Shown: positions 3,312 to 21,591 of the stretch, in pieces
Position numbering within the stretch: the first letter of the stretch is position 1
Layout: the number at the start of each line of letters is the position of its first letter
From: Cellulophaga omnivescoria
Lineage (GTDB): Bacteria > Bacteroidota > Bacteroidia > Flavobacteriales > Flavobacteriaceae
Length of the DNA: 64,000 nt
Assembly (NCBI RefSeq): GCF_001999725.1
Contig: NZ_MDDP01000018.1
Span: 42,794-106,793, forward strand
Direction of reading: 5' to 3'
The notes under the pieces: generated by a model
The model's input: the letters and a program-made list of their open reading frames with translations, nothing else
Database searches by the model: none
What the model was told of the DNA's origin: nothing
Program-made: the position numbers and the translations under genes

Positions 3312-3320
3312 TATAGTTTA

Positions 3321-3347
3321 ATCTTGGTTAGTTTTAAAAACCAAGAT
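3321..3347. repeat. Inverted repeat in leader of M48 gene
   Basis: ATCTTGGTT at 3321-3329 and AACCAAGAT at 3339-3347, 9-base arms with a 9-base spacer, lying 10 bases upstream of the M48 start. No U-tract follows on either strand, so an operator or mRNA hairpin is as likely as a terminator. Confidence 0.5.
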
Positions 3348-3357
3348 ACAAAAAGAG

Positions 3358-4104
3358 TTATAAAAGCTCTGGATTAATATCTAAAATATTGTTTACAATG
3401 TATGATTTTAGAAAGCCAGCTGTAAAGTGTTCACCACCTAAAAGACCTTGGTCTTTTACCAGTCTCATAATGTTTTTACCTCTAAACTGTTCTAGCATGG
3501 GTTTAGAAATTGGTGCATAGCTGTAGTGCCAAGGCTCGTACTTAAAACCTCTTCTTTTTTTATCATTTGTATACACCAAATAAAAGCCAAAATCATTAGC
3601 ATTTTGGTCCATCCACTTTTTTAAATCTTCAAAAGGTCCACCTTCTTCAAACTTTTTAGGAACTAAAACGTCTCCACTTGTTTTTTGATATCCATCTATA
3701 ATATCAATGTCAGTGCCCCAATGGTGTCTGCTTGTGCCAGGTATTGTAGAGTATTCAATAATTTTGTCAATTGCATTAAGTGGTTTCATTTTTTGATCGT
3801 CTGTATATTTTAAATACTTACGTTCCCAAATACCCTCTTGCCTGTAGTAATCTCTGTAGCTAGATACTATTTTTAAATCTATACCAGCACTGTAAGCAGC
3901 AACTTTCATTTTTTTAAATGCATCATGAGCTTCCTTTCTAAGGTTAATTCCTTTGCCATACAAATCAATATCTGCTTTACCCATTAACTCTTCAATAGAA
4001 TAGGTAACTTCTTCTTCTTGCTCTTTGGCAAAAATAAGATGTGGAGCCGTTAATGCGGCAGCACCTAAAATTCCGGTTTTAAGAATAAATGATCTTCTTT
4101 GCAT
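3358..4104 (-). CDS. M15-family D,D-carboxypeptidase-like peptidase, Tat signal
   Basis: VanY-like zinc peptidase of family M15, expected to trim peptidoglycan stem peptides. It is 248 aa. The N-terminus MQRRSFILKTG followed by AALTAPHLIFA is a twin-arginine (Tat) signal, so the enzyme would be exported folded, with metal already bound. The metal site appears as SRHHWGTDIDI (likely ligands H127 and D134) and EPWHYSY near residue 193; SSYRDYYRQ near residue 81 is also family-typical. It lies 5 bp downstream of the GNAT gene. A tatA gene lies at 26140-26421. Confident on family; the D,D-carboxypeptidase activity is inferred. Confidence 0.9.
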   Translation of the reverse strand: MQRRSFILKTGILGAAALTAPHLIFAKEQEEEVTYSIEELMGKADIDLYGKGINLRKEAHDAFKKMKVAAYSAGIDLKIVSSYRDYYRQEGIWERKYLKYTDDQKMKPLNAIDKIIEYSTIPGTSRHHWGTDIDIIDGYQKTSGDVLVPKKFEEGGPFEDLKKWMDQNANDFGFYLVYTNDKKRRGFKYEPWHYSYAPISKPMLEQFRGKNIMRLVKDQGLLGGEHFTAGFLKSYIVNNILDINPELL

Positions 4105-4109
4105 AACTT

Positions 4110-4562
4110 TTAATTTAATTTTTTAAACATAACCATATGAGGTCCTACATTTTGTATGTCAAAAATGTTGCCACTTTTTTTATAACCGCATTTTTGGTAA
4201 AAAGGAATAGCGCTTTCTCTGGCATTCATCCATAATAATAAAACGCCTTTTTCTTTTAAAATTGTTTCTGCGTAGTGAATAATTTTTTTGCCAAGTCCTT
4301 TGCCTTGGTACTTGTTAGCAATGGCCATACCTCTAAGTTGGTAAGCAAAAACATCTAAAATAGTTGTGTTGTTTGCTTTTAGTAGACTTGCTACGCCAAC
4401 TAAAGTGTTGTTTGTGTAAACTCCTATATGAAAAGTTGTATCTCTATTATCTCCATTAAATTCACAGGATGATAAAGGCTTTCCATTCCTTAAAACAGGG
4501 TGTCTTACAGTATATGTTTCTTTTGCAGAAATTAATTTAAAAACAAGTTGGTTATGGTTCAT
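4110..4562 (-). CDS. GNAT-family N-acetyltransferase
   Basis: About 150 aa, starting MNHNQLVFKLISAKETYTVR. Adjacent ATGs at 4562 and 4565 both fit; an ORF start at 4592 adds a tail (MPYTFFLDCM) with no family support. The acetyl-CoA binding motif A is ANKYQGKGLGKKIIHYAE near residues 82-100 (Q/RxxGxG/A core), and ARESAIPFYQKCGYKKSG near residues 115-132 is the classical GNAT motif B with the FY..GF/Y pattern. The acceptor substrate cannot be told. It precedes the M15 peptidase by 5 bp on the same strand, suggesting co-transcription. Confidence 0.9.
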   Translation of the reverse strand: MNHNQLVFKLISAKETYTVRHPVLRNGKPLSSCEFNGDNRDTTFHIGVYTNNTLVGVASLLKANNTTILDVFAYQLRGMAIANKYQGKGLGKKIIHYAETILKEKGVLLLWMNARESAIPFYQKCGYKKSGNIFDIQNVGPHMVMFKKLN

Positions 4563-4601
4563 CATACAATCTAAAAAAAAGGTGTATGGCAAAAGTACGT
4601 A

Positions 4602-5750
4602 TTATTGATTTCCTAAATAGATGTATCCTTGGTGTATAATATTAACATCTTGTAAATTTAATATATAAAAGTATACACCGTCTGGTAAAGCACTGCCAGC
4701 TTTTACAACCCCACGCACATTAGAGGTACCTCCAAAAGTATTATCATAACTATCTCTATCATAAACAATTCTTCCCCATCTACTATAAATTTTTAGATTG
4801 TTATTTTTTGGAGATAAAGAAACCTCTTTAAAGTGTAGAAAATCATTTACACCATCATTATTTGGAGATACAAAATAGTTTTCAAAATTAGTAGAAATAG
4901 CACTTAAACTACTCCCAAAGGTAACTATATCATAATTATTTGGCACAAAAGTGTCTGATGTTATAGAACCAGAACTAAAGTTTCCGCTTATTTCTGTATT
5001 GCCTAGATTTTCCCAAATATTTAATGTTTTGTTCCATCCTACAATACGTAAATCTTCAATAGTATCAGTAAAACTGTTTATATTACTATCAATATCCCAA
5101 GTTAATGTAATTTTAGAGTTGGTATCTGCTTCTAGGTGCCAAAATTCATAGGTGCTGACAGCGGTTAAAATATCAGCAAAATTGTTGGTATTAAAGCTTT
5201 TTGTAAATGTAGAAGGAGCGTTGGGATCTTCGTAAAAGTAAGCACTTTTTGCGGTGTTGTTGCTTGTTTCAGAATCTATATAAAGAGGTCTAATTTTATT
5301 TTGATATCCAATTGGGAAACTAAAATTATGCTTTTCTGTAATTGCAGCATATCCATCAACCTTTGTAAGGTTAGCATCGCCATTATAAAATGCGTAATTT
5401 ATAAAATCTAAATTAATATCGGTTGTATTTCTAGGGGTAACAATGTCTCCTAAAATAAAGTTACTATTGTTTGTAATGCCTACAGCTACATTTAAAAATA
5501 AATCGTTTGTTACAACAATTTCCATATCTTTAAAGACAGGTTTAAAAGCTCCAGAAATGGTTCTGGTATTGTCACTATAAAAACCAGCTAAACCTTCGTT
5601 TTGGTCAAAATTTCCATCGTTTGCCAAATCAATATGAAAACCAATTTGCCCATCATTAAAAATTTTTATGTTTCCTGTATTATGTACTATGTTTTGTGAT
5701 GATAGTAAGCAGGAAAAACTTAAACAGATATAGAAAAGTATTTGTTTCAT
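4602..5750 (-). CDS. T9SS type B secreted protein, partner of fibre gene 5753-6673
   Basis: Start taken at MKQILFYICLSFSCLLSSQ (ATG 5748-5750), a clear signal peptide; the upstream extension MATNTII is unlikely. About 382 aa. Residues near 20-285 form a domain shared with the paralogue at 14208-15365 (common segments: FDQN, SGAF.PVF.D.E, FYEDPN.PSTF..SFNTN, V.T.EFW, FVPN.Y). Residues 290-382 form a gliding-motility-associated C-terminal domain: YFVSPNNDGVNDF, LKIYSRWGRIVYD, DGVYFYILNLQD, the T9SS type B sorting signal that drives export across the outer membrane. It starts 2 bp after the stop of the fibre-like gene 5753-6673, so translation is probably coupled. Function beyond secretion is unknown. 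Confidence 0.85.
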   Translation of the reverse strand: MKQILFYICLSFSCLLSSQNIVHNTGNIKIFNDGQIGFHIDLANDGNFDQNEGLAGFYSDNTRTISGAFKPVFKDMEIVVTNDLFLNVAVGITNNSNFILGDIVTPRNTTDINLDFINYAFYNGDANLTKVDGYAAITEKHNFSFPIGYQNKIRPLYIDSETSNNTAKSAYFYEDPNAPSTFTKSFNTNNFADILTAVSTYEFWHLEADTNSKITLTWDIDSNINSFTDTIEDLRIVGWNKTLNIWENLGNTEISGNFSSGSITSDTFVPNNYDIVTFGSSLSAISTNFENYFVSPNNDGVNDFLHFKEVSLSPKNNNLKIYSRWGRIVYDRDSYDNTFGGTSNVRGVVKAGSALPDGVYFYILNLQDVNIIHQGYIYLGNQ

Positions 5751-5752
5751 TA

Positions 5753-6673
5753 TTATTGTATTTGTTGCCAATCTGTGCCATCACTCTGTAGCCAAATTGT
5801 TTTTAAACTTAATATAACGTTTATATTAGCACCTACTAAATCTTTGTAAGTACTAATTGTTGCTGTTAATGTTAGAGTGTTTGGGTTTTTAATTACATAA
5901 ATTCTTCCTTTGCACGTAGAAGCATCCGGTAATGTTATGTTATGTGCCCCGCCTAAAATTATAGTATGGTGAGTTTCGTTTAAAGTTAAATCTCCAGTGG
6001 TAACATCTATAGCCGTAGAAACAGAACCTTTAACTTCTAGGGTTGAATGGACATTATCGCCTGAATATGCTAAATCTTCTGGTAAGTTAAAACCAATACC
6101 CAAACGGTCGCTAATTAAAACTTGGGAGTTGGTAGAATTGTATTTGTCTATACGAATAGCTTCCTTATTACCTACAGTAAAATTAAGTTCGTTAGTAGCT
6201 GTTCTATACATACCTGTATCTGTATCTCCATTAAATCTATATGATGGTTCACCTTGGTTTCCATCACTGTTTAATAAGCCAGCGCTTCGTATTGCGCCAC
6301 TAACTTGTAATTTGTTTGTAGGGGTGTTAGTTCCAATTCCTAGCCTGTTATTTGTATTGTTCCAATAAATTTGATTGTTATCCTCTTCAGGTTCTCCAAA
6401 TGAATTGGTATATAAAATTGAACCGGGGGTATAGGTTGCGGGTAGTAAATCTGTGATATCTGGAATTTTTTGCCATACAGTGGCGTTGTATAAATAGATG
6501 CGTTTTTCATCTGTATTATACAAAATTGAACCTTCTAAAGAGCCTGTTATTCCGCTTATTTCTGCAGAAGTTGCACTAGTAAGTCCTAATAATAAATTAG
6601 GGTCTATTTGGCCGTAACACATTACTATTGGTGATAGCAACATTAGTTTGAATATTATTTTTTTCATCATCAT
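5753..6673 (-). CDS. Short fibre-like secreted protein (about 306 aa)
   Basis: Three tandem ATGs (6673, 6670, 6667) precede KKIIFKLMLLSPIVMCYGQ, a signal peptide; the third ATG is perhaps most likely. Residues about 44-72 (GSILYNTDEKRIYLYNATVW) match the N-terminal cap module of the two larger fibre proteins. Residues 105-185 contain NRLGIGTNTPTNKLQVSGAI and DTGMYRTATNELNFTVGN, segments typical of phage-tail-fibre-like and Bacteroidetes surface proteins and shared with the 999-aa protein (GTNAPGTNKLRVDGVI). It has no T9SS sorting domain of its own. The T9SS type B partner follows after 2 bp. A role as a surface fibre or adhesin is inference. Confidence 0.75.
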   Translation of the reverse strand: MMMKKIIFKLMLLSPIVMCYGQIDPNLLLGLTSATSAEISGITGSLEGSILYNTDEKRIYLYNATVWQKIPDITDLLPATYTPGSILYTNSFGEPEEDNNQIYWNNTNNRLGIGTNTPTNKLQVSGAIRSAGLLNSDGNQGEPSYRFNGDTDTGMYRTATNELNFTVGNKEAIRIDKYNSTNSQVLISDRLGIGFNLPEDLAYSGDNVHSTLEVKGSVSTAIDVTTGDLTLNETHHTIILGGAHNITLPDASTCKGRIYVIKNPNTLTLTATISTYKDLVGANINVILSLKTIWLQSDGTDWQQIQ

Positions 6674-6877
6674 TAAATTATTGGTTTTGTCTATTTCTTA
6701 AAGCATACTAGTCTGCTATTGGTTGTTGATTTGTAACTAGTATTAAGAAGTAGAAGTTTGTTTAATTTGATGAATTACTTGGGGAACTAAAAGTAACTCG
6801 GTTTTTTGATTATAGATTTGAATTTTAAGGGTTAAACTTTATTTTGATTGTCTTTATATTTTACCTTTTAGTTATTT

Positions 6878-9800
6878 TTATAAGTCTAGAATTACAAACA
6901 TAAATTCGGAGTCAAACCTTGCTCTGTCTGATCCTCCGTTATCATTATCTCCAACAATAACATCAAATCCAGCAGTTGTTTGGTTGCTATAAGAAATTCC
7001 TGGGTCATCGTTGCCAGCACCAGCTCTTCCAGGCTGACTTAATTGGATAATGTAGTTAGCATCAGAAACAGTTCCTGCTGGTAAATTAACTCTGTAATGT
7101 CCAGCTCCAACTTGTTTAACAACAGTAACACCTGTTGTACCTTTTAATATTACACCAAGAGCATTTACTTTTCCTATTGCTTTTACCATACTATTGTAAA
7201 ATGCACCACCATCAGTTCCTGGAGTAATATCATTATTGGTGTCAGCAGAAATAACTTCTGCAGTTTGTGTTATTGCAGATTCGTTTACATAACTAATAAC
7301 ACCAGAAGTATCATCTTGACTTAAATTTGTGACACTTCCGCCTATTATACCACTAATTTGAGTGTCTACATAAGTTTTAACTGCATTTTGGGTAGGATAT
7401 AAAGTTGAAGATGGCGATGTGTCTCCTAAATCTGTAGCATCAGATTTGTTTGTTAAATCTTCTTTTAAAGCAATAGCAGCATCAGCATCAGCCTCGTTAT
7501 TATTGACATCCGTTTGTACAGCATTAATAGCGTTTGTAGTTGCTGTATTGTTAGTGGTTAATTCGGTTTCTGTAACAAAAGTTCCGTCTAAGTCTTGAGA
7601 TAATGTTCCATCTGCATCTGTAATTTCTAAAGCAGTACCATTTAAAGTAAATCCTGTGTTTACCTCGTTGGTAGCATCAGTATCACCATCAGCAGAATTA
7701 GAAGCAGCAACTTGTGTGTCTACATAAGTTTTAACAGCATTTTGAGTAGGAAAAGCATCATCAGAAGTTCCTAAAGCTACGTTGGTAGACTTGTTGGCAG
7801 CATCTTCTTTTAAAGCGATAGCTGTATTTGCAGCAGTTTCGTTGGCATCAACATCAGTTTGTACTGCATTAATAGCGTTTGTAGTTGCAGTATTGTTAGC
7901 TGTTAATTCAGTTTCTGTAACAAACGTACCGTCTAAGTCTTGAGATAATGTTCCATCTGCATCTGTAATTTCTAAAGCTGTGCCGTTTAAAGTAAATCCT
8001 GTGTTTACCTCGTTGGTAGCATCAGTATCACCATCAGCAGAATTAGAAGCAGCAACTTGTGCATCTACATAAGTTTTAACAGCATTTTGAGTAGGGAAAG
8101 CAACATCAGAAGTTCCTAAAGCTACGTTGGTAGATTTATTAGCAGCATCTTCTTTTAAAGCGATAGCTGTATTTGCAGCAGTTTCGTTGGCATCAACATC
8201 AGTTTGTACTGCATTAATAGCGTTTGTAGTTGCTGTATTGTTAGCTGTTAATTCAGTTTCTGTAACAAACGTACCGTCTAAATCTTGAGATAATGTTCCA
8301 TCTGCATCTGTAATTTCTAAAGCAGTACCGTTTAAAGTAAATCCTGTGTTTACCTCGTTGGTAGCATCCGTATCACCATCAGCAGAATTAGAAGCAGCAA
8401 CTTGTGCGTCTACATAAGTTTTAACTGCATTTTGAGTAGGAAAAGCATCATCAGAAGTTCCTAAAGCTACGTTGGTAGATTTGTTAGCAGCATCTTCTTT
8501 TAAAGCGATAGCTGTATTTGCAGCCGCTTCATTATTGTCTACATCCGTTTGTACCGCATTAATAGCGTTTGTAGTTGCTGTATTGTTAGCTGTTAATTCA
8601 GTTTCTGTAACAAAAGTTCCGTCTAAGTCTTGCGATAATGTACCGTCTGCATCTGTAATTTCTAAAGCAGTACCGTTTAAAGTAAATCCTGTGTTTACCT
8701 CGTTGGTAGCATCCGTATCGCCATCAGCAGAATTAGAAGCAGCAACTTGTGCGTCTACATAAGTTTTAACAGCATTTTGAGTAGGAAAGGCATCATCTGA
8801 AGTTCCTAAAGCTACGTTGGTAGACTTGTTAGCAGCATCTTCTTTTAAAGCGATAGCTGTATTTGCAGCCGCTTCATTATTGTCTACATCCGTTTGTACA
8901 GCATTAATAGCGTTTGTAGTTGCTGTATTGTTAGTGGTTAATTCGGTTTCTGTAACAAATGTGCCGTCTAAATCTTGAGATAATGTTCCATCTGCATCTG
9001 TAATTTCTAAAGCAGTACCATTTAAAGTAAATCCTGTGTTTACCTCGTTGGTAGCATCAGTATCACCATCAGCAGAATTAGAAGCTGTAATTTGTGCATC
9101 TACGTAAGTTTTAACAGCATTTTGAGTAGGAAAGGCATCATCTGAAGTTCCTAAAGCTACGTTGGTAGACTTGTTAGCAGCATCTTCTTTTAAAGCGATA
9201 GCTGTATTTGCAGCCGCTTCATTATTATCCACATCAGTTTGCACGGCAGCAATAGCATTAGTTGCCGCTGTTTCGTTAGCGTCAATATCAGCCTGAATAG
9301 CATTTTCTGCATTTGTAGCTCTTGTGGTTTCTGTAGTTATTGCGGTAGCGTTATTAGAAATATTAGTTTGTAAAGTAGCATCGTCATAAAAAGCGCCGCC
9401 ATCAGCCCCAGCTGTAATATTATTGTTGGCATCTGTACTTATAATAACTTGGTTAGAAGCAGCAACTTGTGCATCTACATAAGTTTTAACAGCATTTTGA
9501 GTAGGGAAAGCATCGTCAGAAGTTCCTAAAGCCACGTTGGTAGACTTGTTAGCTGCATCTTCTTTAAGGTTTATAGCATTGGTGGCAGCAATTTCATTAG
9601 CATCAACATCAGCCTGAATAGCATTTTCTGCATTTGTAGCTCTTGTGGTTTCTGTAGTTATTGCGGTAGCGTTATTAGAAATATTAGTTTGTAAAGTAGC
9701 ATCATCATAAAAAGCACCACCATCAGCCCCAGTGGTAATATCATTGTTGGCATCTGTACTTACAATAACTTGAGTAGAAGCAATTATTTGAGCATCTACA

Positions 9801-12800
9801 TAACTTTTAGAGGTAGCATCTTGTGGGTTTACAGGGTTTGCTATTGAGGTTACAGCATTACCGCCCATTGTTAAAGGACCTGTCATAGCATCACCAATAA
9901 TATTAACATAACGAGCATCATTAGTAGATAAGTCTGTGGCTACCTCTTGCCATCCGGTTGGATCATCATATATAAAAGCAACACCATTTCTATCTGTATT
10001 AGGGGCTACTTCACCAGATACAATGTAAATGTCAGAGTCTACTCCAGTTGCAGGTCTATCAGATTCAAGTCCAGTTGAAACACTAGATAGTACAACAGCT
10101 ACATTTCCATTTGCAGTAGGATTTACACCATTTACACTTCTTACAATATTAGGTATTGTTGTTACTCCATTAATTTCATCTGTAAAAACTAAGCTGTTTT
10201 CAGAGCCAGCTGGACTCTCTAATTTGGATACCGTTTCGTTATCTAATATCCAATTAGTTCCGTTCCATCTCATTATTTGACCATTGCTAGTTCCGTTAGC
10301 TAACTTATCTAAAGTAACATTATCATTAGCAATTTTACTTGCTATTATGGCATTATCTGCAATACTAAGGCTTACATTTTCAAATGCAGCATTAGTACCA
10401 CCTGTAACATCAATATCTGTTGAGGTTATATTGCCATCAGCTTGTGCATCTACATATGTTTTAACTGCATTTTGAGTAGGGAATAAAGTAGAAGAAGGAG
10501 ATGTGTTGCCTAAATCAGTTGCATCAGATTTATTGGCAGTATCTTCTTTAAGGTCGATAGCGTCATTAGTTGCAGTTTCATTAGCGTCAACATCTGCTTG
10601 TACCGCAGCAATTGCGTTAGTTGCCGCAGATTCGTTGGCATCAACATCAGCCTGAATAGCATTTTCTGCATTTGTAGCTCTTGTGGTTTCTGTAGTGATT
10701 GCAGTAGCATTATTGGCAATATTAGTTTGCAAAGCAGCATCGTCATAAAAAGCACCACCATCAACCCCAGCTGTAATATTATTGTTGGCATCTGTACTTA
10801 CAATAACTTGGTTAGAAGCAGCAACTTGTGCATCTACATAAGTTTTAACAGCATTTTGAGTAGGAAAAGCATCGTCAGAAGTTCCTAGAGCTACGTTGGT
10901 AGATTTGTTAGCAGCATCTTCTTTTAAAGCGATAGCTGTATTTGCAGCGGCTTCGTTATTATCAACATCCGTTTGTACCGCATTAATAGCGTTTGTAGTT
11001 GCAGTATTGTTAGCTGTTAATTCAGTTTCTGTAACAAATGTGCCGTCTAAGTCTTGAGACAAAGTACCATCTGCATCTGTAATTTCTAAAGCAGTACCGT
11101 TTAAAGTAAATCCTGTGTTTACCTCGTTGGTAGCATCCGTATCGCCATCAGCAGAATTAGAAGCTGTAATTTGTGCATCTACATAAGTTTTAACTGCTAG
11201 TTCGGTTGGGAATTTTGTATTTGTGGCATCTGCTAAATTTACATCGTCCGATTTATTAGCAGCGTCTTCTTTATCATTCTGTAAATTTGTGATTGCTGTG
11301 TTTGCAGCGGCTTCGTTATTATCAACATCCGTTTGTACCGCATTAATAGCGTTTGTAGTTGCTGTATTGTTAGTGGTTAATTCAGTTTCTGTAACAAAAG
11401 TTCCGTCTAAGTCTTGAGACAAAGTACCATCTGCATCTGTAATTTCCAAAGCAGTACCGTTTAAAGTAAATCCTGTGTTTACCTCGTTGGTAGCATCCGT
11501 ATCGCCATCAGCAGAATTAGAAGCTGTAATTTGTGCATCTACATAAGTTTTAACTGCTAGTTCGGTTGGAAATTTTGTATTTGTTGCATCCGCTAAATTT
11601 ACATCGTCCGATTTATTAGCAGCGTCTTCTTTATCATTTTGTAAATTTGTGATTGCTGTGTTTGCAGCCGCTTCATTATTATCCACATCCGTTTGTACCG
11701 CATTAATAGCGTTTGTAGTTGCAGTATTGTTAGCTGTTAATTCAGTTTCTGTAACAAATGTGCCGTCTAAATCTTGAGACAAAGTACCATCTGCATCTGT
11801 AATTTCTAAAGCTGTTCCGTTTAAAGTAAATCCTGTGTTTACCTCGTTTGTAGCATCCGTATCGCCATCAGCAGAATTAGAAGCAGCAACTTGTGCATCT
11901 ACATAAGTTTTAACAGCATTTTGAGTAGGAAAAGCATCATCTGAAGTTCCTAAAGCTACGTTGGTAGATTTATTAGCAGCATCTTCTTTATCATTCTGTA
12001 AATTTGTGATTGCTGTGTTTGCAGCAGTTATAGCAGCATCAGCATCAGCCTCGTTATTATTGACATCCGTTTGTACCGCATTAATAGCGTTTGTAGTTGC
12101 GGTATTGTTAGCTGTTAATTCAGTTTCTGTAACAAAAGTTCCGTCTAAGTCTTGAGACAAAGTACCGTCTGCATCTGTAATTTCTAAAGCTGTGCCGTTT
12201 AAAGTAAATCCTGTGTTTACCTCGTTGGTAGCATCAGTATCACCATCAGCAGAATTAGAAGCTGTAATTTGTGCATCCACATAAGTTTTAACAGCATTTT
12301 GAGTAGGGAAAGCATCATCTGAAGTTCCTAAAGCTACGTTGGTAGACTTATTAGCAGCGTCTTCTTTTAAAGCGATAGCTGTATTTGCAGCGGTTTCATT
12401 ATTATCCACATCGGTTTGTACCGCATTAATAGCGTTTGTAGTTGCTGTATTGTTAGTGGTTAATTCAGTTTCTGTAACAAAAGTTCCGTCTAAGTCTTGA
12501 GACAAAGTACCATCAGCATCTGTAATTTCTAAAGCAGTACCGTTTAAAGTAAATCCTGTGTTTACCTCGTTGGTAGCATCCGTATCGCCATCAGCAGAAT
12601 TAGAAGCTGTAATTTGTGCGTCTACATAAGTTTTAACTGCTAGTTCGGTTGGAAATTTTGTATTTGTTGCATCCGCTAAATTTACATCGTCCGATTTATT
12701 AGCAGTGTCTTCTTTATCATTCTGTAAATTTGTGATTGCTGTGTTTGCAGCAGTTATAGCAGCATCAGCATCAGCCTCGTTATTATTGACATCCGTTTGT

Positions 12801-13840
12801 ACCGCATTAATAGCGTTTGTAGTTGCTGTATTGTTAGCTGTTAATTCAGTTTCTGTAACAAATGTGCCGTCTAAATCTTGAGACAAAGTACCATCTGCAT
12901 CTGTAATTTCTAAATCAGTACCGTTTAAAGTAAATCCTGTGTTTACCTCGTTTGTAGCATCCGTATCGCCATCAGCAGAATTAGAAGCAGCAACTTGTGC
13001 GTCTACATAAGTTTTAACAGCATTTTGAGTAGGAAAAGCATCATCTGAAGTTCCTAGAGCTACGTTGGTAGATTTATTAGCAGCATCTTCTTTTAAAGCG
13101 ATAGCTGTATTTGCAGCCGCTTCATTATTATCAACATCCGTTTGTACTGTATTAATAGCGTTTGTAGTTGCTGTATTGTTAGCTGTTAATTCAGTTTCTG
13201 TAACAAATGTACCGTCTAAGTCTTGCGATAACGTACCATCTGCATCTGTAATTTCTAAAGCTGTACCGTTTAAAGTAAATCCTGTGTTTACTTCGTTGGT
13301 AGCATCCGCATCCGCATCATCAACATTTAAAACTACAGAGCCACCATTTTCTAAAGTTAGGTTTCCAGCTGTTCCATTTGTACTTATAGCTTGGTTGTCA
13401 GTTCCCGTAAAATTTACTGGAGTTCCATTGCCATTAGTGTAGCTAAAAGTTCCGTCTCCGTTAGCTGTTAATTGTGATTTTGTGATGGTTACCGTAACGT
13501 TATTTTCGTTTGTGTAGGAAAACGTACCGTCGTTATTATCAAAAATAACTGTCTTTGTTTCATTAAAAGAATTTGTGTTGCACAAAGATTGCCATAGTAT
13601 ACCGTTGTACTGAAACATACAATTTTCATCTGTATTATACACCATAGCGCCAGTTAGGGGAGTAATGGCTAGCATTTGTGCATTGGTAACTCTGGTTAAT
13701 ATTAATACTTTGTCCGTACTTTCTAACTCTAAAATAGAGGAAGGATGTATCGTATTTATATCATTACCTATTTTTACCTGCCCATAAGAGTAATGAGCAA
13801 AAGCAAAAAAACTGATTAATAATAATTTGTTGATTTTCAT
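6878..13840 (-). CDS. Giant repetitive fibre-like secreted protein (2320 aa)
   Basis: Signal peptide MKINKLLLISFFAFAHYSYG, then a cap module at residues 21-92 (SILELESTDKVLILTR, GAMVYNTDENCMFQYNGILW) shared with the 999-aa protein. Twelve copies of a 115-127-residue unit follow in two blocks: seven at about residues 177-1000 and five at about 1455-2157. Each unit has a short beta-like part (GFTLNGTALEITDADGTLSQ), an Ala/Asn-rich part predicted helical or coiled coil (AINAVQTDVDNNEAAANTAI) and a linker (FPTQNAVKTYVDAQ) common in phage tail fibres. The central part has GDAMTGPLTMGGNAVTSIAN, a tail-fibre motif. The C-terminal about 160 residues look like a globular tip. No T9SS or anchoring domain is seen. 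Composition is Asn/Thr/Ala/Asp-rich. The gene lies between two fibre/T9SS pairs on the same strand. A trimeric fibre or adhesin is inferred. Confidence 0.8.
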   Translation of the reverse strand: MKINKLLLISFFAFAHYSYGQVKIGNDINTIHPSSILELESTDKVLILTRVTNAQMLAITPLTGAMVYNTDENCMFQYNGILWQSLCNTNSFNETKTVIFDNNDGTFSYTNENNVTVTITKSQLTANGDGTFSYTNGNGTPVNFTGTDNQAISTNGTAGNLTLENGGSVVLNVDDADADATNEVNTGFTLNGTALEITDADGTLSQDLDGTFVTETELTANNTATTNAINTVQTDVDNNEAAANTAIALKEDAANKSTNVALGTSDDAFPTQNAVKTYVDAQVAASNSADGDTDATNEVNTGFTLNGTDLEITDADGTLSQDLDGTFVTETELTANNTATTNAINAVQTDVNNNEADADAAITAANTAITNLQNDKEDTANKSDDVNLADATNTKFPTELAVKTYVDAQITASNSADGDTDATNEVNTGFTLNGTALEITDADGTLSQDLDGTFVTETELTTNNTATTNAINAVQTDVDNNETAANTAIALKEDAANKSTNVALGTSDDAFPTQNAVKTYVDAQITASNSADGDTDATNEVNTGFTLNGTALEITDADGTLSQDLDGTFVTETELTANNTATTNAINAVQTDVNNNEADADAAITAANTAITNLQNDKEDAANKSTNVALGTSDDAFPTQNAVKTYVDAQVAASNSADGDTDATNEVNTGFTLNGTALEITDADGTLSQDLDGTFVTETELTANNTATTNAINAVQTDVDNNEAAANTAITNLQNDKEDAANKSDDVNLADATNTKFPTELAVKTYVDAQITASNSADGDTDATNEVNTGFTLNGTALEITDADGTLSQDLDGTFVTETELTTNNTATTNAINAVQTDVDNNEAAANTAITNLQNDKEDAANKSDDVNLADATNTKFPTELAVKTYVDAQITASNSADGDTDATNEVNTGFTLNGTALEITDADGTLSQDLDGTFVTETELTANNTATTNAINAVQTDVDNNEAAANTAIALKEDAANKSTNVALGTSDDAFPTQNAVKTYVDAQVAASNQVIVSTDANNNITAGVDGGAFYDDAALQTNIANNATAITTETTRATNAENAIQADVDANESAATNAIAAVQADVDANETATNDAIDLKEDTANKSDATDLGNTSPSSTLFPTQNAVKTYVDAQADGNITSTDIDVTGGTNAAFENVSLSIADNAIIASKIANDNVTLDKLANGTSNGQIMRWNGTNWILDNETVSKLESPAGSENSLVFTDEINGVTTIPNIVRSVNGVNPTANGNVAVVLSSVSTGLESDRPATGVDSDIYIVSGEVAPNTDRNGVAFIYDDPTGWQEVATDLSTNDARYVNIIGDAMTGPLTMGGNAVTSIANPVNPQDATSKSYVDAQIIASTQVIVSTDANNDITTGADGGAFYDDATLQTNISNNATAITTETTRATNAENAIQADVDANEIAATNAINLKEDAANKSTNVALGTSDDAFPTQNAVKTYVDAQVAASNQVIISTDANNNITAGADGGAFYDDATLQTNISNNATAITTETTRATNAENAIQADIDANETAATNAIAAVQTDVDNNEAAANTAIALKEDAANKSTNVALGTSDDAFPTQNAVKTYVDAQITASNSADGDTDATNEVNTGFTLNGTALEITDADGTLSQDLDGTFVTETELTTNNTATTNAINAVQTDVDNNEAAANTAIALKEDAANKSTNVALGTSDDAFPTQNAVKTYVDAQVAASNSADGDTDATNEVNTGFTLNGTALEITDADGTLSQDLDGTFVTETELTANNTATTNAINAVQTDVDNNEAAANTAIALKEDAANKSTNVALGTSDDAFPTQNAVKTYVDAQVAASNSADGDTDATNEVNTGFTLNGTALEITDADGTLSQDLDGTFVTETELTANNTATTNAINAVQTDVDANETAANTAIALKEDAANKSTNVALGTSDVAFPTQNAVKTYVDAQVAASNSADGDTDATNEVNTGFTLNGTALEITDADGTLSQDLDGTFVTETELTANNTATTNAINAVQTDVDANETAANTAIALKEDAANKSTNVALGTSDDAFPTQNAVKTYVDTQVAASNSADGDTDATNEVNTGFTLNGTALEITDADGTLSQDLDGTFVTETELTTNNTATTNAINAVQTDVNNNEADADAAIALKEDLTNKSDATDLGDTSPSSTLYPTQNAVKTYVDTQISGIIGGSVTNLSQDDTSGVISYVNESAITQTAEVISADTNNDITPGTDGGAFYNSMVKAIGKVNALGVILKGTTGVTVVKQVGAGHYRVNLPAGTVSDANYIIQLSQPGRAGAGNDDPGISYSNQTTAGFDVIVGDNDNGGSDRARFDSEFMFVILDL
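7370..9480 (-). repeat. C-terminal coding repeat block, 5 units of 345 bp
   Basis: The anchor GTAAATCCTGTGTTTAC (plus strand) occurs at 7647, 7992, 8337, 8682 and 9027, an exact 345-bp period, so each unit encodes 115 residues. Units differ by scattered silent or conservative changes only. Boundaries are approximate. Confidence 0.95.
10840..13310 (-). repeat. N-terminal coding repeat block, 7 units of 345-381 bp
   Basis: The same anchor occurs at 11106, 11466, 11826, 12204, 12549, 12930 and 13275. Steps are 360, 360, 378, 345, 381 and 345 bp; the extra 15-36 bp encode added coiled-coil residues (ITNLQNDK or ITAANTAITNLQNDK) and an alternative linker (VNLADATNTKFPTELAVKTY). All length changes are multiples of three, so the frame is kept. 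Confidence 0.95.
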
Positions 13841-13891
13841 AAATATGTGTAATGGTTAACAATTGTAAATTAAAAAAATAACAGTTTGGTT

Positions 13892-13921
13892 AATAAAGTT
13901 TGTTGTAAAACAACCTTTATT
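13892..13921. repeat. 13-bp inverted repeat with 4-base loop
   Basis: AATAAAGTTTGTT and AACAACCTTTATT pair over 13 bases with one mismatch around the loop GTAA. It lies 52 bases upstream of the giant-gene ATG. It could be an mRNA leader hairpin or a protein-binding palindrome. Confidence 0.65.
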
Positions 13922-13940
13922 GTATGCGTGATAGTTATTT

Positions 13941-13965
13941 GTTGATATAACTTTACTATATCAAC
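13941..13965. repeat. 9-bp perfect inverted repeat
   Basis: GTTGATATA and TATATCAAC separated by 7 bases. Its dyad shape fits a regulator operator, and it sits about 100-125 bases upstream of the giant-gene start, where a promoter would be expected. Confidence 0.55.
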
Positions 13966-14141
13966 TACTATATACAGACCTGGTTTTTAGTAGAGTTTGG
14001 CTAGTTGTTATCATAAAAATACAATAAAATGAGTTGTTTTTATGTATTTAATTTGACTTATTTTCTTACTATTTTGTATTACTTATGATTGGTGTTTTTT
14101 ATAACCTGTTGATTATCTTAAGGTAAGCTGTGTTTATAAAC

Positions 14142-14170
14142 AAAAAAACAGACCCGCTTGGTCTGTTTTT
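14142..14170 (-). terminator. Intrinsic terminator after T9SS gene 14208-15365
   Basis: Read on the minus strand, AAAAACAGACC pairs with GGTCTGTTTTT around AAGCG, ending in seven T, 38 bases past the stop. It separates the 999-aa/385-aa gene pair from the giant gene. Confidence 0.9.
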
Positions 14171-14207
14171 ACTTATAAATGATAATGATTTATTAACTTA
14201 TTTTTTT

Positions 14208-15365
14208 TTAATTGCCTGTGTCTGTGAGATATAAAAAGCCTTGGTATTCTAGTTGAAGATCGTCTAGAAAAACCAAATAAAAATAGATACCACTTGGTAA
14301 GCCTTCATTTCTTTGGTATACGTTATTGCTAGTGTTAGAGTAGCCGTTAAACTCATTTGTATAATTGTCTTTTTCAAAAACTTTAAGTCCGTTTCTATCA
14401 AAAATACGAAGACGATTGTTAGGGGATTCTTCTAGCTCAGGTATTATAAGATTGTCATTTATGCCATCACCATTTGGGCTAACATAATAATTATCTAGGT
14501 CTAATAGCTCTGTTGCAATTGCCATTTTAGCTAATGTAATAACTTCGTAGTCGTTTGGAACAAAGGTTTCTGAAGTTACTGCACCCTGGTTTAGATCTCC
14601 AATAGGGTCTACACTACCTAAACTAACCCATCTTCTTTGTATTCTGTGCCAACCCGCAATACCTACTTGGTAATACTCATCTACTAGGTTTGCAATATTG
14701 CTACGGTTGTTCCACGAGATACTAACGGTAGATGGTAGGCTACTATCTATATCCCAAAACTCTGTAGTGCTCACAGCTCTAACTTCTTTTTCTTTACTAT
14801 TGGTATTAAAACTTGTGCTAAATGTTGATGGCAGGTTGGGATCCTCAAAAAAATAAGCACATTTGGCTGATACATTTTCGCTTTGCGACTGCAATGTTAA
14901 AGGTCTAATGTAGCCAGAATCGCCAACGGTAAAAAAGAAATTTTGTTTTTGTTCTACTAGCATATACCCATCTACTTTAGACAGGTTAGACTCGCCAACC
15001 GTAAAAGCATTTTGAGTAAGTTTTAAGTTTTCTAATGGGTTGTTGCGGTAGGTAACAAAGTCGCCATCTACTAAATTTAAAGCATTAGTAGCAGTAATAG
15101 AAGTCTCTAAAATAGTTGCACTAAAAGGCTTGTACATTTCTACATCATAAAAAACAGGAATAAACGCGCCAGTAACACTAGTGGTTACTTGACCATAAAA
15201 ACCAAGTGTACCCAAATTTTGGTCAAATGTAGCATCGTTAATAAGGTTGGTGTGCAGCCCAAGAGTACCCGTATCGTGTATGCGTATGCTACCGTTGTTG
15301 TACATAGCATTTTGTGCTACGGCAACAGAACTACAACATAAAAATATGTAAAGAAAGTTTTTCAT
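14208..15365 (-). CDS. T9SS type B secreted protein, partner of fibre gene 15369-18368
   Basis: 385 aa with signal peptide MKNFLYIFLCCSSVAVAQ. Residues about 20-290 are paralogous to the protein at 4602-5750 (shared FDQN, TGAF.PVFYDVEM, YFFEDPNLPSTFSTSFNTN, VSTTEFWD, SETFVPNDYEVITLA). Residues about 293-385 are a gliding-motility/T9SS type B C-terminal domain: NYYVSPNGDGINDNLIIPEL, RLRIFDRNGLKVFEKDNY, PSGIYFYLVFLDD. It starts 3 bp after the stop of the 999-aa fibre gene and is followed by a strong terminator, so the two form a discrete bicistron. The N-terminal domain is not one I can name; secretion to the surface is well supported, function is not known. Confidence 0.88.
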   Translation of the reverse strand: MKNFLYIFLCCSSVAVAQNAMYNNGSIRIHDTGTLGLHTNLINDATFDQNLGTLGFYGQVTTSVTGAFIPVFYDVEMYKPFSATILETSITATNALNLVDGDFVTYRNNPLENLKLTQNAFTVGESNLSKVDGYMLVEQKQNFFFTVGDSGYIRPLTLQSQSENVSAKCAYFFEDPNLPSTFSTSFNTNSKEKEVRAVSTTEFWDIDSSLPSTVSISWNNRSNIANLVDEYYQVGIAGWHRIQRRWVSLGSVDPIGDLNQGAVTSETFVPNDYEVITLAKMAIATELLDLDNYYVSPNGDGINDNLIIPELEESPNNRLRIFDRNGLKVFEKDNYTNEFNGYSNTSNNVYQRNEGLPSGIYFYLVFLDDLQLEYQGFLYLTDTGN

Positions 15366-15368
15366 AGT

Positions 15369-18368
15369 CTAAAAGTCTGTTACTGTAAAGAACCATTGAG
15401 AAACAACAAGGGCGTCAGTAGTGTCTTTAATTTCAACAGTAAAACCATTAATAGTCTGAGCGGTTATATATATTCTATTATTTCCAACAACTGTTAAGTT
15501 TACTATATAGTTATTATCAGGCATTGCGGAGTCAAAGGTAACTGTGTTAATACCTCCACCTCCGCCAACAGTAGCTCCATTTACTTTTATTGCATTAGCC
15601 CCGTTAGCTTTTCCCATAACAAATGTTGCTGGGTTCTTCCATTCGGTTCCTGTGCCTGTTGAGGTTAAAACCTGTCCTGTTGTACCAACCGAGTTGTTAA
15701 TATCTTCAATGGTACCATCTAGCTTTAGTTTTTCACGAATAGTAACGGTAGTGCTACCGGATGTTTCATCAATATTAAGTGCTTCAACTGCACCAACAGA
15801 AAAACCAATTTCATCAGCGGCTGGATTAGAAATACCAGTGTTTAAATCATCAGAGAACCGATAAGCAGGAGTAGCGGTACTACCGTTATTAGGTGCTTGA
15901 TATCCAGTAGCTCTTATAACGCCATCAACTCTCAATTTGTTTGTTCCTGGTGCATTAGTCCCTATTACCATACTACCAGGGCCACTAAAGAATAGATCAT
16001 TTCCATTTAAATTATAAGTTCTTGTTGAAGCTGTTTGAGTCATATCTCTTGTCTCCAAATTTCCTAATGCAGCAACTTCAGTGTCAACATAGGTTTTAAC
16101 GGCATTTTGTGTAGGATATAATGTTGATGAGGGTGAAGTGGCTCCTAAATCAGTTGCATCAGACTTATTAGTTAAATCTTCTTTTGCAGCTAAAGCAGTT
16201 GCTGCAGCTGTTCCTGCGGTAGCAATTGCATCATCTACATATACTTTAGTAGCAGCATCTTGTGCATCAGTAGGGTCTAAAACGTTAATTAGTTTTTGTG
16301 ATCCCATAGATAAGTCGCCCGTTGGAAGAGCAAAACCAGACAGAGAAATATTTGCTTTGTCTAATTTATTGTCATCAATTGCTGCGTTTGCAATTTTGTC
16401 TCTAGTAATATTTGTGTCAGCTATTTTTACTGTTGTTACGGCATTGTCAGCCAGCTCTGCTGTATTAATTCCGCCTGCACTAACATCTAGAGTTAATGGG
16501 TCTGCAACAGTTCCTGCACCAGAAACAGCAAGTGTGCCATCTGTTGGGCCAGTAACTTCGTTACCAATTATACCATCTGCTTCTGCAGTAGTTAAGGTAG
16601 CAGCATCAACTAAAACCCAATTTGTGCCATCCCATTGCATTAATTGTCCAACGGCTGTACCATCCGCTAATTTTGTTAGTGTAATATTTTTATCGGCAAT
16701 ATCATTACTTTCTATAGATGCGTCTAAAATTTTATCACCTGTTACTGCGTCATTAGCTAACTTAGTATTGTCAATAGAACCAGCAATAATTTGCAAGCCG
16801 TTTGTAGCGTCAACTTCAATAGTTGTATTATCTACATTTACTTCTAAATCCATTGTAGCTAAAGCTGCATTTGCAGTAACACCAGAAATAGAACCATTAC
16901 TAGAAATTACATCTTCGCCTAGACTAGCTGCAACTTCACTAGCATTTTGCCACTCTGGATCTCCAGCAGCGGAGGTTCCAAGAATTTTGTTAGCATCTAC
17001 AGCACCTGCGCTTCCAATTTTATCTATAGTAATAGCATCATCAGCAATATCTAGTGTTGTTATTGTACCATCTAAAATATTTTCAGTTTGTACAGCATCA
17101 TCCGCTAGTTTAGTATTTTCAATGGCATCATCTGCAATCTTAACAGTAGTAACATTAGCATCTACTATTTTGGTAGTTGTTACTGCACCATCAGCAAGTT
17201 CGTTTGCACCAACAGCACTTGGGTTAATCTCTAAAGTAACGTCATTTAAAGCTGCATTTGCACCGCCAGTTATATTTAAGTCTGTAGAGGTAATGTTACC
17301 ATCACCTGTTAAAGCAGCAACATCTACATCTAAGGCACCAGTAGTTGCATTTTTTGTTAATCCAGAACCGGCAACATCTGCATTCATTTTTATAGCGGTT
17401 ATAGCATCATCAGCAATATCTAGTGTTGTTATTGTACCATCTAAAATATTTTCAGTTTGTACAGCATCATCTGCTACTTTGGTATTATCTATTGCATCGT
17501 CTACAATCTTAACAGTAGTAACATTTGCATCTACTATTTTAGCTGTAGTAACTGCGTCTGGAGCTAATTTAGCATCGGTAATTCCGCCATCAGCAACAGA
17601 AATGCCAACAGTTTCTAATAAAGAACCAGTGGGAGTTCCTGTAAAAGTAATTGAAGCATCGTCTGTAGTTAAATCTTGCCCTGCAATGTTAGTAGCGTCT
17701 AACGTTCCCCATTCTACATTAGTGCCAGTACTGTTTGTCTTTAAAACTTGGTTTGGTGTTGCACTTGGTTCTATTTTTACAGGTGTAACCGACTCGTCTA
17801 TAAGATTATTTGTATTTACACTTGTATCTCCTAACTCATCTACACCAATAGCATCATTTGCAATTTTGGATCTATCAATAGTTTTGTTTAGTATAGAGTT
17901 TCCGTGTATTTGGTCTACTTCTATGTTCACCGTATTTCCATCATCAGTTATTTTTATTCCGCTAGAGAAAGTAGCTCCAAAACTGCCTGTATGGTTGCTT
18001 GTAAAAGCAGGGGTTTCAAATGTAATATCGTCGCCAGCTGCGTTTGTAAAGGTGTACGTATCATCACCGTTATCTACCAAGTTAATATTTCCAGCATTTT
18101 CTGCTTCACATAAATTTACCCACTCACTATCATTGTAATAGTGCAAACATCTGGTATCTGTATTGTATATCACGGCACCGTTAAGTGGTGTAATAGCATT
18201 CATTTGTAGGGTAGACATTCTAGTAATTACTAAAGCTTTACTTGTGCTCTCTAGCTCTAAAACCGAGTTAAAATGAAGGTTTTCAGGATTTTCGCCAATT
18301 TTTACTTGTGCTTGTATGCTAGTAAATAGGCAGGTACTTAAAAATAATCCAAAAATTAATTTTTTCAT
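15369..18368 (-). CDS. Repetitive fibre-like secreted protein (999 aa)
   Basis: Start taken at ATG 18366-18368, giving signal peptide MKKLIFGLFLSTCLFTSIQA; the in-frame extension upstream (MFAMHNCILKHLYY) looks untranslated and would overlap a -7 element. The cap module (SVLELESTSKALVITRMSTL, GAVIYNTDTRCLHYYNDSEW) matches the giant protein. Residues about 150-660 are beta-solenoid-like repeats (AVTTVKIADTNITRDKIANA style), 680-760 have tail-fibre motifs (LSMGSQKLINVLDPTDAQDA, LYPTQNAVKTYVDTEV), then GTNAPGTNKLRVDGVI and a C-terminal tip ending WFFTVTDF. A TATTTTTG box lies 40 bases upstream. The 666-codon ORF on the opposite strand is a shadow. No sorting domain; the T9SS partner follows 3 bp downstream. 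Confidence 0.82.
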   Translation of the reverse strand: MKKLIFGLFLSTCLFTSIQAQVKIGENPENLHFNSVLELESTSKALVITRMSTLQMNAITPLNGAVIYNTDTRCLHYYNDSEWVNLCEAENAGNINLVDNGDDTYTFTNAAGDDITFETPAFTSNHTGSFGATFSSGIKITDDGNTVNIEVDQIHGNSILNKTIDRSKIANDAIGVDELGDTSVNTNNLIDESVTPVKIEPSATPNQVLKTNSTGTNVEWGTLDATNIAGQDLTTDDASITFTGTPTGSLLETVGISVADGGITDAKLAPDAVTTAKIVDANVTTVKIVDDAIDNTKVADDAVQTENILDGTITTLDIADDAITAIKMNADVAGSGLTKNATTGALDVDVAALTGDGNITSTDLNITGGANAALNDVTLEINPSAVGANELADGAVTTTKIVDANVTTVKIADDAIENTKLADDAVQTENILDGTITTLDIADDAITIDKIGSAGAVDANKILGTSAAGDPEWQNASEVAASLGEDVISSNGSISGVTANAALATMDLEVNVDNTTIEVDATNGLQIIAGSIDNTKLANDAVTGDKILDASIESNDIADKNITLTKLADGTAVGQLMQWDGTNWVLVDAATLTTAEADGIIGNEVTGPTDGTLAVSGAGTVADPLTLDVSAGGINTAELADNAVTTVKIADTNITRDKIANAAIDDNKLDKANISLSGFALPTGDLSMGSQKLINVLDPTDAQDAATKVYVDDAIATAGTAAATALAAKEDLTNKSDATDLGATSPSSTLYPTQNAVKTYVDTEVAALGNLETRDMTQTASTRTYNLNGNDLFFSGPGSMVIGTNAPGTNKLRVDGVIRATGYQAPNNGSTATPAYRFSDDLNTGISNPAADEIGFSVGAVEALNIDETSGSTTVTIREKLKLDGTIEDINNSVGTTGQVLTSTGTGTEWKNPATFVMGKANGANAIKVNGATVGGGGGINTVTFDSAMPDNNYIVNLTVVGNNRIYITAQTINGFTVEIKDTTDALVVSQWFFTVTDF
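17033..17555 (-). repeat. Direct repeat within the 999-aa fibre gene (about 154 bp, offset 369)
   Basis: Bases about 17033-17186 recur at 17402-17555 with few changes; both start near TCAGCAATATCTAGTG. They encode two copies of a solenoid segment (DDAVQTENILDGTITTLDIA). It shows internal duplication like that in the giant protein, at lower copy number. Confidence 0.8.
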
Positions 18369-18407
18369 ATAGTAGAGGTGTTTTAAAATGCAATTATGCA
18401 TTGCAAA

Positions 18408-18415
18408 CAAAAATA
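18408..18415 (-). promoter_or_regulatory. Candidate -7 element for 999-aa fibre gene
   Basis: TATTTTTG on the minus strand, 40 bases before the chosen ATG. It supports the downstream start, since the longer ORF would begin inside the element. No well-spaced TTG was seen. Confidence 0.4.
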
Positions 18416-18497: not shown

Positions 18498-19190
18498 TTA
18501 AAATTGAATTGTTTTGCTCTCGTAGGCAGCTTTTTGTGGTTCAAAAATACGCGCGGTAAAATTTCCTTTTAGGTTAATAGTGTTATTGTTAACTAATAAA
18601 AAACTACCTTCTCTTAGTCCAACCACAGGCGTAGTGTTATACGTATGAAACTCTTTTATGCGTGTTTCTCTAGTTTCACCGTTGTGTTTGCTATTAGGGT
18701 CCGGATCTAAATAATGTGCATTTATGTTAAAAGGAACCAGTTGCATAGTTTCAAAACTAGGAGGGTAAACAATAGGCATATCATTAGTAGTATGCATACT
18801 AACACCTGCAATGTTGCTGCCGGCGCTTGTTCCCATATAAGGTTTTCCGTTGGTAATATGCTCTTGTAAGTGCAGCATAGCATTTTGGTTGTACAATTGT
18901 TGTACTAGTAAAAAAGTGTTGCCGCCACCACAGAAAAAAGCTTGTGCTTGGTTAATACCTTCTTGTGCAGTTGTGTAAGTATGTAGGCCAACTATTTTTT
19001 TATCAATTTTTGCAAATGCTTTGGCAGCAATAGCAGTGTAATTGTCATGGCTAATACCACCAGGCCTAGCATAAGGTATAAATGTTATTGTATCTACATC
19101 TTTAAAAAATAAAGCAACATCATCTAACAGGTACTCCAAGTAATTCTCTCCAAATAAGGTAGATGTGCTTGCTAATAATAGATTTTTCAT
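18498..19190 (-). CDS. pepE: Dipeptidase E (aspartyl dipeptidase, family S51)
   Basis: Cytosolic serine peptidase that splits N-terminal Asp dipeptides. Start at ATG 19188-19190 (MKNLLLASTSTLFGENYLEY), 230 aa, the family's usual size; the ORF could be extended by six residues without benefit. The putative triad is Ser122 in GTSAGSN, Asp137 and His159 (NINAHY), with spacings of 15 and 37 that equal those of the E. coli enzyme (S120, D135, H157). CGGGNTFLL near residues 87-95 is also typical. It is a single gene, divergent from the array that begins at 19340. Confidence 0.93.
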   Translation of the reverse strand: MKNLLLASTSTLFGENYLEYLLDDVALFFKDVDTITFIPYARPGGISHDNYTAIAAKAFAKIDKKIVGLHTYTTAQEGINQAQAFFCGGGNTFLLVQQLYNQNAMLHLQEHITNGKPYMGTSAGSNIAGVSMHTTNDMPIVYPPSFETMQLVPFNINAHYLDPDPNSKHNGETRETRIKEFHTYNTTPVVGLREGSFLLVNNNTINLKGNFTARIFEPQKAAYESKTIQF

Positions 19191-19262
19191 ACAGTATACG
19201 CTTTTCAATTTTTTTAGTTAACAGGATACAAATTAACAAAAGTTTAATGGTACTCTATTTTT

Positions 19263-20077: not shown

Positions 20078-20080
20078 AGT

Positions 20081-20848: not shown

Positions 20849-20864
20849 CTTACCCTATATTTTT

Positions 20865-21584: not shown

Positions 21585-21591
21585 GGTAGAT

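What the first reader, a model, noticed from the sequence alone, without database searches (positions are those of the whole stretch)
4602..18368. Fibre-like proteins paired with small T9SS type B proteins: a possible surface-appendage system
Seen: three proteins share an N-terminal cap (LELEST..., YNTD...) and tail-fibre-like body. Two of them (999 and about 306 aa) are followed after 2-3 bp by paralogous 382-385 aa proteins that end in a T9SS type B domain and share an unnamed N-terminal domain. The fibres have a signal peptide but no T9SS or anchoring domain. Known: the type B C-terminal domain directs outer-membrane export. Inference: the small partner carries, caps or anchors the fibre on the cell surface, so fibre and export signal are split into two genes. 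I know of no named system with this layout.
Basis: partly seen in the sequence, partly recalled or inferred. Interest (0 to 1): 0.78.

Follow-up and report, generated by a model that had tools for sequence, protein, structure and literature searches.

The report
Surface fibres with separate export anchors
A Cellulophaga-like bacterium carries gene pairs in which a predicted phage-tail-like fibre, whose tips are of unrelated kinds in some close relatives, is followed directly by a small protein bearing the type IX export signal that the fibre lacks, and this small protein likely carries the fibre out and holds it on the cell surface, which would be a new two-part way to build surface adhesins.

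Summary
Two fibre genes are each followed after 2-3 bp by a paralogous 382/385-aa protein ending in a type B T9SS sorting domain. In 299 genomes of the family, 66 have the full-length partner. Of 101 partner genes, 94 have a fibre gene directly upstream (median gap 7 nt), against 25 of 395 other ORFs in the same stretches. None of 97 upstream C-termini scanned matches a T9SS sorting model; 10 carry collagen repeats, which implies trimers. The fibre cap resembles trimerisation heads of phage fibres (weak fold match). Within Cellulophaga, partners 90-94% identical to the window's follow fibres with two unrelated tip families, so the partner likely reads the conserved cap, not the tip. A sister partner class (20 loci) has a PorP/SprF shuttle directly downstream in 20 of 20; the window's class has none in 101. 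The cassettes sit in one chromosomal site that is empty in some relatives. Best reading: a two-component T9SS adhesin, in which a dedicated type B carrier exports and/or anchors a separate trimeric fibre with exchangeable tips. Contact, export route and surface location are untested; a coevolution test was weak.

The parts
15369..18368 (-). Type I fibre (999 aa): Sec signal peptide (read by eye), N-terminal cap, repetitive shaft, lectin-like tip; no T9SS domain
   Evidence: PHROG tail-fibre hit E 3.5e-33
18105..18311 (-). Fibre cap (residues 20-88), begins A-Q-V-K-I-G; PF26696 in precomputed Pfam; predicted trimerisation head
15372..15701 (-). Fibre tip (last 110 aa), replaced by an unrelated tip family in some close relatives
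14208..15365 (-). Partner/carrier 1 (385 aa): Sec signal (by eye), beta-helix domain, GAIN/ZU5-like domain, type B T9SS sorting domain
14946..15317 (-). Partner 1 residues 17-140, predicted bactofilin-like beta-helix
14517..14975 (-). Partner 1 residues 131-283, predicted GAIN/ZU5/FIIND-like sandwich
14211..14501 (-). Partner 1 residues 289-385, type B CTD (CHU_C)
6878..13840 (-). Long type II fibre (2320 aa) with full cap, highly repetitive shaft and tip of the NDDPGISY...FDSEFMF type
5753..6673 (-). Short fibre (306 aa) with truncated cap; PHROG tail-fibre hits
4602..5750 (-). Partner/carrier 2 (382 aa), paralogue of partner 1, type B CTD
18498..19208 (-). Left border of the conserved site: peptidase S51 gene
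2544..4592 (-). Right border of the conserved site: GNAT (4592-4110), VanY-like carboxypeptidase (4104-3358), M48 peptidase (3311-2544)

Best explanation
Each unit pairs a fibre protein, predicted to be trimeric and lacking any recognised T9SS sorting domain, with a directly following small protein whose type B sorting domain likely serves to export and anchor the fibre through the fibre's N-terminal cap. Proposed steps. (1) Both proteins enter the periplasm by Sec (signal peptides read by eye in the sequence). (2) The fibre trimerises and its N-terminal cap docks on the beta-helix/GAIN-like part of the partner (inferred). (3) The partner's type B domain is taken by the SprA translocon and handed to a PorP/SprF-family shuttle, taking the fibre along or capturing it outside (inferred; SprA and PorP/SprF family genes are present in the genome). 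(4) The shuttle-bound partner holds the fibre base at the outer membrane while the exchangeable C-terminal tip points outward and binds a target (inferred).
Confidence: 0.6

Rival explanations
1. The fibre crosses the outer membrane by a route of its own (for example an unrecognised T9SS signal) and the partner is only an outside anchor or base plate.
For: The fibres have ordinary Sec signals (by eye) and some capped genes have no partner behind them (L231, L233). Nothing shows that the partner is needed for export.
Against: No T9SS sorting or autotransporter domain is among the families hit by 97 C-termini; the gene linkage is very tight.
Confidence: 0.2
2. The two proteins are separate adhesins that share an operon and do not touch.
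For: Co-transcription alone would give the small gaps; the coevolution signal was weak.
Against: Strong caps occur in 15 of 15 chosen partner-carrying genomes and 0 of 15 without; the sister class repeats the design with other CTD-less adhesins plus a shuttle gene.
Confidence: 0.12
3. The fibres stay in the periplasm, with the partner as their surface-facing cap or unrelated.
For: No anchor and no export signal on the fibre itself.
Against: Collagen repeats and tips that differ between close relatives are easier to understand against outside targets (inference).
Confidence: 0.05
4. The cassette is a prophage remnant or a tailocin fibre module.
For: PHROG tail-fibre hits; weak cap hits in Synechococcus phages (41% identity, E 1e-3) and two uncultured phages (35%, E 2e-4).
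Against: No phage structural gene among ten flanking proteins scanned; no partner match in 50,697 phage records and no close one in viral contigs; bacterial T9SS domain and fixed chromosomal site.
Confidence: 0.03

Closest known systems
SprB/SprF of Flavobacterium johnsoniae (type B T9SS adhesin with its shuttle)
   Same: Type B sorting domain; likely PorP/SprF-dependent surface holding; large adhesive cargo
   Different: SprB carries the sorting domain itself; here the fibre and the sorting domain are two proteins
[quoted passage not shown]
   Same: Type B proteins without an adjacent shuttle gene; a distant orphan shuttle serves several
   Different: No fibre partner is described in the passages read; I could not check whether they are homologous to these partners
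PG1035-PorP-PorE of Porphyromonas gingivalis (PMC9143113)
   Same: Small (~50 kDa) type B protein held on the surface by PorP
   Different: No fibre in the passages read; speculated there to be a cap for PorP
Grappling hook protein A (GhpA) of Aureispira (PDB 9flp)
   Same: Only PDB sequence relative of the partner profile at E<=0.01, through the CTD alone (profile positions 294-379)
   Different: One 5898-residue protein with its own CTD; no separate carrier known to me
Phage tail fibres / Major Tropism Determinant
   Same: Trimer-type head (weak fold match), repetitive shaft, exchangeable tip
   Different: Has a Sec signal and is paired with a T9SS partner gene rather than a virion
Trimeric autotransporter adhesins (YadA type)
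   Same: Predicted trimeric surface fibre with an adhesive end
   Different: No C-terminal barrel anchor found; opposite polarity in the model (N-terminus at the cell, tip at the C-terminus)

Membership tests
T9SS type B substrate (the partner) | C-terminal CHU_C / TIGR04131 domain | tested here: met
   PF13585 79-84 bits against cut-off 27; TIGR04131 33.9 and 34.3 bits, just under its cut-off of 35
T9SS type B substrate (the partner) | T9SS translocon present in the genome | tested here: met
   SprA_N twice in a 2383-aa frame; other T9SS genes not searched
T9SS type B substrate (the partner) | PorP/SprF shuttle encoded next door (common, not universal) | tested here: not met
   0 of 101 in the window's class, 20 of 20 in the sister class; 8 of the 14 other CHU_C matches of this genome have one next door by my reading
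T9SS type B substrate (the partner) | Secretion depends on the T9SS | not testable with these tools
   needs a mutant
Ordinary single-chain T9SS adhesin (SprB type) | Adhesive region and sorting domain in one protein | tested here: not met
   0 of 97 upstream C-termini carry a sorting domain
Trimeric autotransporter adhesin | YadA-like C-terminal barrel anchor | tested here: not met
   not among the 17 Pfam families hit by 97 C-termini at E<=0.01
Phage tail fibre | Sequence families of tail fibres | tested here: met
   PHROG tail-fibre hits for P0005 and P0002
Phage tail fibre | Encoded with virion genes | tested here: not met
   none among ten flanking proteins; partner has no match in phage records
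Bactofilin (partner N-domain) | Bactofilin beta-helix fold | tested here: inconclusive
GAIN / ZU5 / FIIND fold (partner middle domain) | Fold match well above background | tested here: inconclusive

The most novel reading that the evidence does not exclude
T9SS has a two-component cargo mode: dedicated type B carrier proteins export and anchor separate adhesins that have no sorting domain, by gripping a conserved non-covalent handle. Trimeric phage-like fibres with freely exchangeable tips are the main cargo in the window's class; CshA/GEVED, lectin-like, CUB and Ig-type adhesins are cargo in a sister class that brings its own PorP/SprF shuttle. Fibre cassettes are swapped in and out at one chromosomal site.
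Probability: 0.4. Interest if true: 0.85.

Novelty: new variant of a known kind. Interest (0 to 1): 0.68.

Why it matters
The T9SS papers whose passages I read treat the sorting domain as part of each exported protein. A separate carrier would mean that surface proteomes of Bacteroidota predicted from sorting domains miss whole classes of surface proteins. It would also explain how long trimeric fibres with very different tips reach the surface, and it offers a compact handle for studying strain-specific adhesion, predation and phage contact in Flavobacteriaceae.

Tried and rejected
Prophage/tailocin reading: judged unlikely. Fibre with a hidden standard T9SS domain: not seen at the sensitivity of Pfam and NCBIfam. 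Chance neighbourhood: rejected. My first control (8 of 443) left out capped ORFs by construction, so I replaced it (25 of 395). My first wording of three unrelated tip types in Cellulophaga was wrong: BLASTP joins them into two families; the odds given did not hang on it and are unchanged.

Distance-matrix coevolution to locate the contact (68 units, 51 genomes): weak and not decisive. Cap structure: mean pLDDT 67, so fold matches are hints only; no PDB sequence match better than E 0.34. Partner model: no Foldseek match with E<=0.001.

VanY-M48 as functional members: considered, then judged to be the border of the site, because S51 stands next to the (GNAT-)VanY-M48 run without a cassette in 5 of 7 partner-less genomes fetched. 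Pfam/NCBIfam hits in the 2320-aa fibre (RHS and others) were taken as repeat artefacts: no stretch passed on its own.

Beyond the family: 295 genomes of the class at E<=1e-25 gave three genomes (own included), all of the same family. Ten literature searches found no description of this pair; the library lacks most subscription papers and preprints. Of the papers I saw passages (PMC12618676 with its section 7 whole, PMC9143113, PMC12635249, PMC10994853, PMC10202324), the rest as listings.
Full report
What is there. The region 4602-18410 (minus strand) holds five genes: a 999-aa fibre, a 385-aa partner 3 bp behind it, a 2320-aa fibre, a 306-aa fibre, and a 382-aa partner 2 bp behind that. The partners are paralogues (42% identity over residues 5-381) ending in a type B T9SS sorting domain. 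Neither TIGR04131 score quite reaches the curated cut-off of 35 (33.9 and 34.3), but PF13585 is far over its own. The 999- and 306-aa fibres have no Pfam hit in the library used here and the 2320-aa one only hits without a passing stretch; PHROG calls the first two tail-fibre-like. The host is probably a Cellulophaga: the nearest capped proteins are those of Cellulophaga lytica and close kin (cap 96-97% identical), and a Cellulophaga locus has a partner 90% identical.

Is the pairing real. A profile of 79 partners was run over 299 genomes of the family. Full-length partners (E<=4.9e-79) make up 101 listed places in 66 genomes by my reading of the table; only six candidates a genome were scored, so this is a lower bound. 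101 such ORFs, the two of the window included, were examined in fetched stretches. Of 99 with a same-strand ORF ending within 400 nt upstream, 77 have a gap of 30 nt or less and the median is 7. The upstream ORF is a fibre in 94 of 101: 68 by the cap profile at E<=0.01 (25 of the 68 were its seeds; 49 are below 1e-25), 19 cut off by a contig end but similar to capped fibres of other loci, and 7 complete and similar. The other seven: unrelated short ORF (L056), LamG-like or other proteins (L101, L113, L119), a run of N (second unit of L116), contig start (L122), truncated partner (L128). As a control, of 395 other six-frame ORFs of 200 aa or more in the same stretches 19 are capped and 6 resemble capped fibres; several of these are further fibres of the same arrays.

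The converse. In 30 genomes that I chose (15 with a partner, 15 without a full-length one), strong caps (E<=9.3e-39) number 25, all in the 15 partner genomes (in most genomes 150 candidates were scored, not all). By my reading of coordinates, 21 of the 25 lead into a partner (17 directly, 4 through at least one short fibre). Two do not (L231, L233), one meets a contig end and one lies behind a truncated partner. A looser cap-like family without partners exists elsewhere (E 1e-20 to 1e-4).

The fibres carry no recognised export signal of the T9SS. C-terminal pieces of up to 220 aa from 97 of the 99 upstream ORFs (those with a gap up to 260 nt) were scanned: no TIGR04131 or TIGR04183 at E<=0.01. 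None of the 120 listed of 154 capped homologues has PF13585 or PF18962. All 77 strong caps of the fetched stretches have Q-[VILM]-K-[VI]-G at the mature start, one with a Cys near the presumed cleavage site, so a lipid anchor is unlikely.

Tips are exchanged, cap and partner are not. The tips (last 110 aa) of the 94 fibres fall into 12 groups by BLASTP at E<=1e-3, the largest of 26, 17, 16, 12 and 11. Among fifteen Cellulophaga fibres (the window's own included), the tips form two unrelated families, each with members as little as 29-34% identical; the eight fibres with caps 96-98% identical to the window's are spread over both. In the genus, 17 of 18 genomes have full-length partners. Four genomes with partners 90-94% identical to the window's have caps 76-95% identical; one has the window's tip family and three the other (L149 looks like the same genome as L247 and was left out of this count). 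So one partner type serves fibres with unrelated tips. This is the best evidence that the partner reads the N-terminal end. A formal distance test over 68 units was weak for both cap and tip and does not add to it.

A sister class. Twenty more distant partners (109-146 bits, 339-438 aa) have a PorP/SprF shuttle gene directly downstream in 20 of 20, against 0 of 101 in the window's class (98 with enough sequence). Upstream of the sister class, 11 of 19 ORFs are fibre-like. Seven others are adhesin-like or unnamed proteins (CshA_NR2+GEVED; a lectin hit under its cut-off; CUB; Ig_7; propeller/FG-GAP; two without Pfam hits) with no T9SS sorting hit; the last is an unrelated enzyme-like ORF (L146), and L143 has none. 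A further sister partner has a long acidic DTDGDG rod between its N-domains and CTD, 13 nt behind an ORF that looks fibre-like by eye, as expected if the N-domains hold cargo away from the membrane. A profile of this class finds 26 places in 23 of 299 genomes at E<=1.2e-100 (my reading); of five of these not in the first twenty and looked at (L275 lay's list, L279-L283), L281 and L282 have no fibre-like ORF upstream.

Site. In the window the cassettes lie between a peptidase S51 gene and a GNAT-VanY-M48 run. In 5 of 7 fetched partner-less genomes, S51 stands next to that run with no cassette (L234, L235, L236, L239, L240; L236 lacks the GNAT and L239 has another ORF in its place); the other two are rearranged. 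The seven were those of 18 partner-less genomes with a close VanY homologue. A VanY-type gene lies downstream, same strand, in the fetched stretch for 65 of 101 partners.

Mechanism and its basis. Type B proteins are taken from the translocon by PorP/SprF-family shuttles and stay bound to them on the surface (PMC9143113, PMC12618676, PMC12635249; passages, and section 7 of PMC12618676, read). Three F. johnsoniae type B substrates without adjacent shuttle share one distant shuttle, so the lack of an adjacent shuttle here is no obstacle; this genome has PorP/SprF genes away from type B genes (C2:447064, C34:287279). From that I infer that the partner is exported and held by a shuttle, and that the fibre rides on it or is caught by it. 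Export of a CTD-less cargo by a separate carrier is inference; I found no precedent in ten searches of an open-access library.

Standing. Shown: gene layout, conservation, absence of recognised sorting domains, tip exchange with conserved cap and partner, the sister class with shuttle, the chromosomal site. Predicted: folds and trimer state. Inferred: contact, export, anchoring, adhesion.

Noticed in passing
window 2544-4592 and 18498-19208; L234, L235, L236, L239, L240: The fibre cassettes occupy a conserved chromosomal site (S51 peptidase on one side, GNAT-VanY-M48 on the other) that is empty in five partner-less relatives: a variable surface-gene site of Flavobacteriaceae.
   Followed up: partly
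L129-L148 (20 loci): A distant partner class with a PorP/SprF shuttle directly downstream in 20 of 20 and fibres or other CTD-less proteins upstream in 18 of 20.
   Followed up: partly
L135, L136, L137, L144, L147, L275: Different adhesin-like proteins upstream of sister-class partners share a short C-terminal tail of the form (T/V)NP(M/H)xxx(K/R), e.g. ITNPMLPSKAK; possibly a docking tag for the partner.
   Followed up: no
L129:4242-5336 and L130:2950-11361: Two other upstream proteins share a different C-terminal tail (YMRHGKYF...QPMEFG).
   Followed up: no
L283:1492-3498: A sister-class partner of 668 aa with an acidic DTDGDG-repeat rod between its N-domains and its CTD, 13 nt behind a fibre-like ORF.
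   Followed up: partly
own genome C2:447064-447963 and C34:287279-288094: PorP/SprF genes not next to a type B gene: candidate shuttles for the two window partners.
   Followed up: no
window 19340-22332: Tandem small proteins with CarboxypepD_reg-like domains, with an M1 peptidase gene beyond (23731); conserved beside the fibre site in several relatives.
   Followed up: partly
fibre genes of class I loci (L027, L030, L049-L128): 20 of 99 upstream fibre ORFs are cut at a contig end, as expected of repetitive genes; assemblies will under-count these fibres.
   Followed up: no
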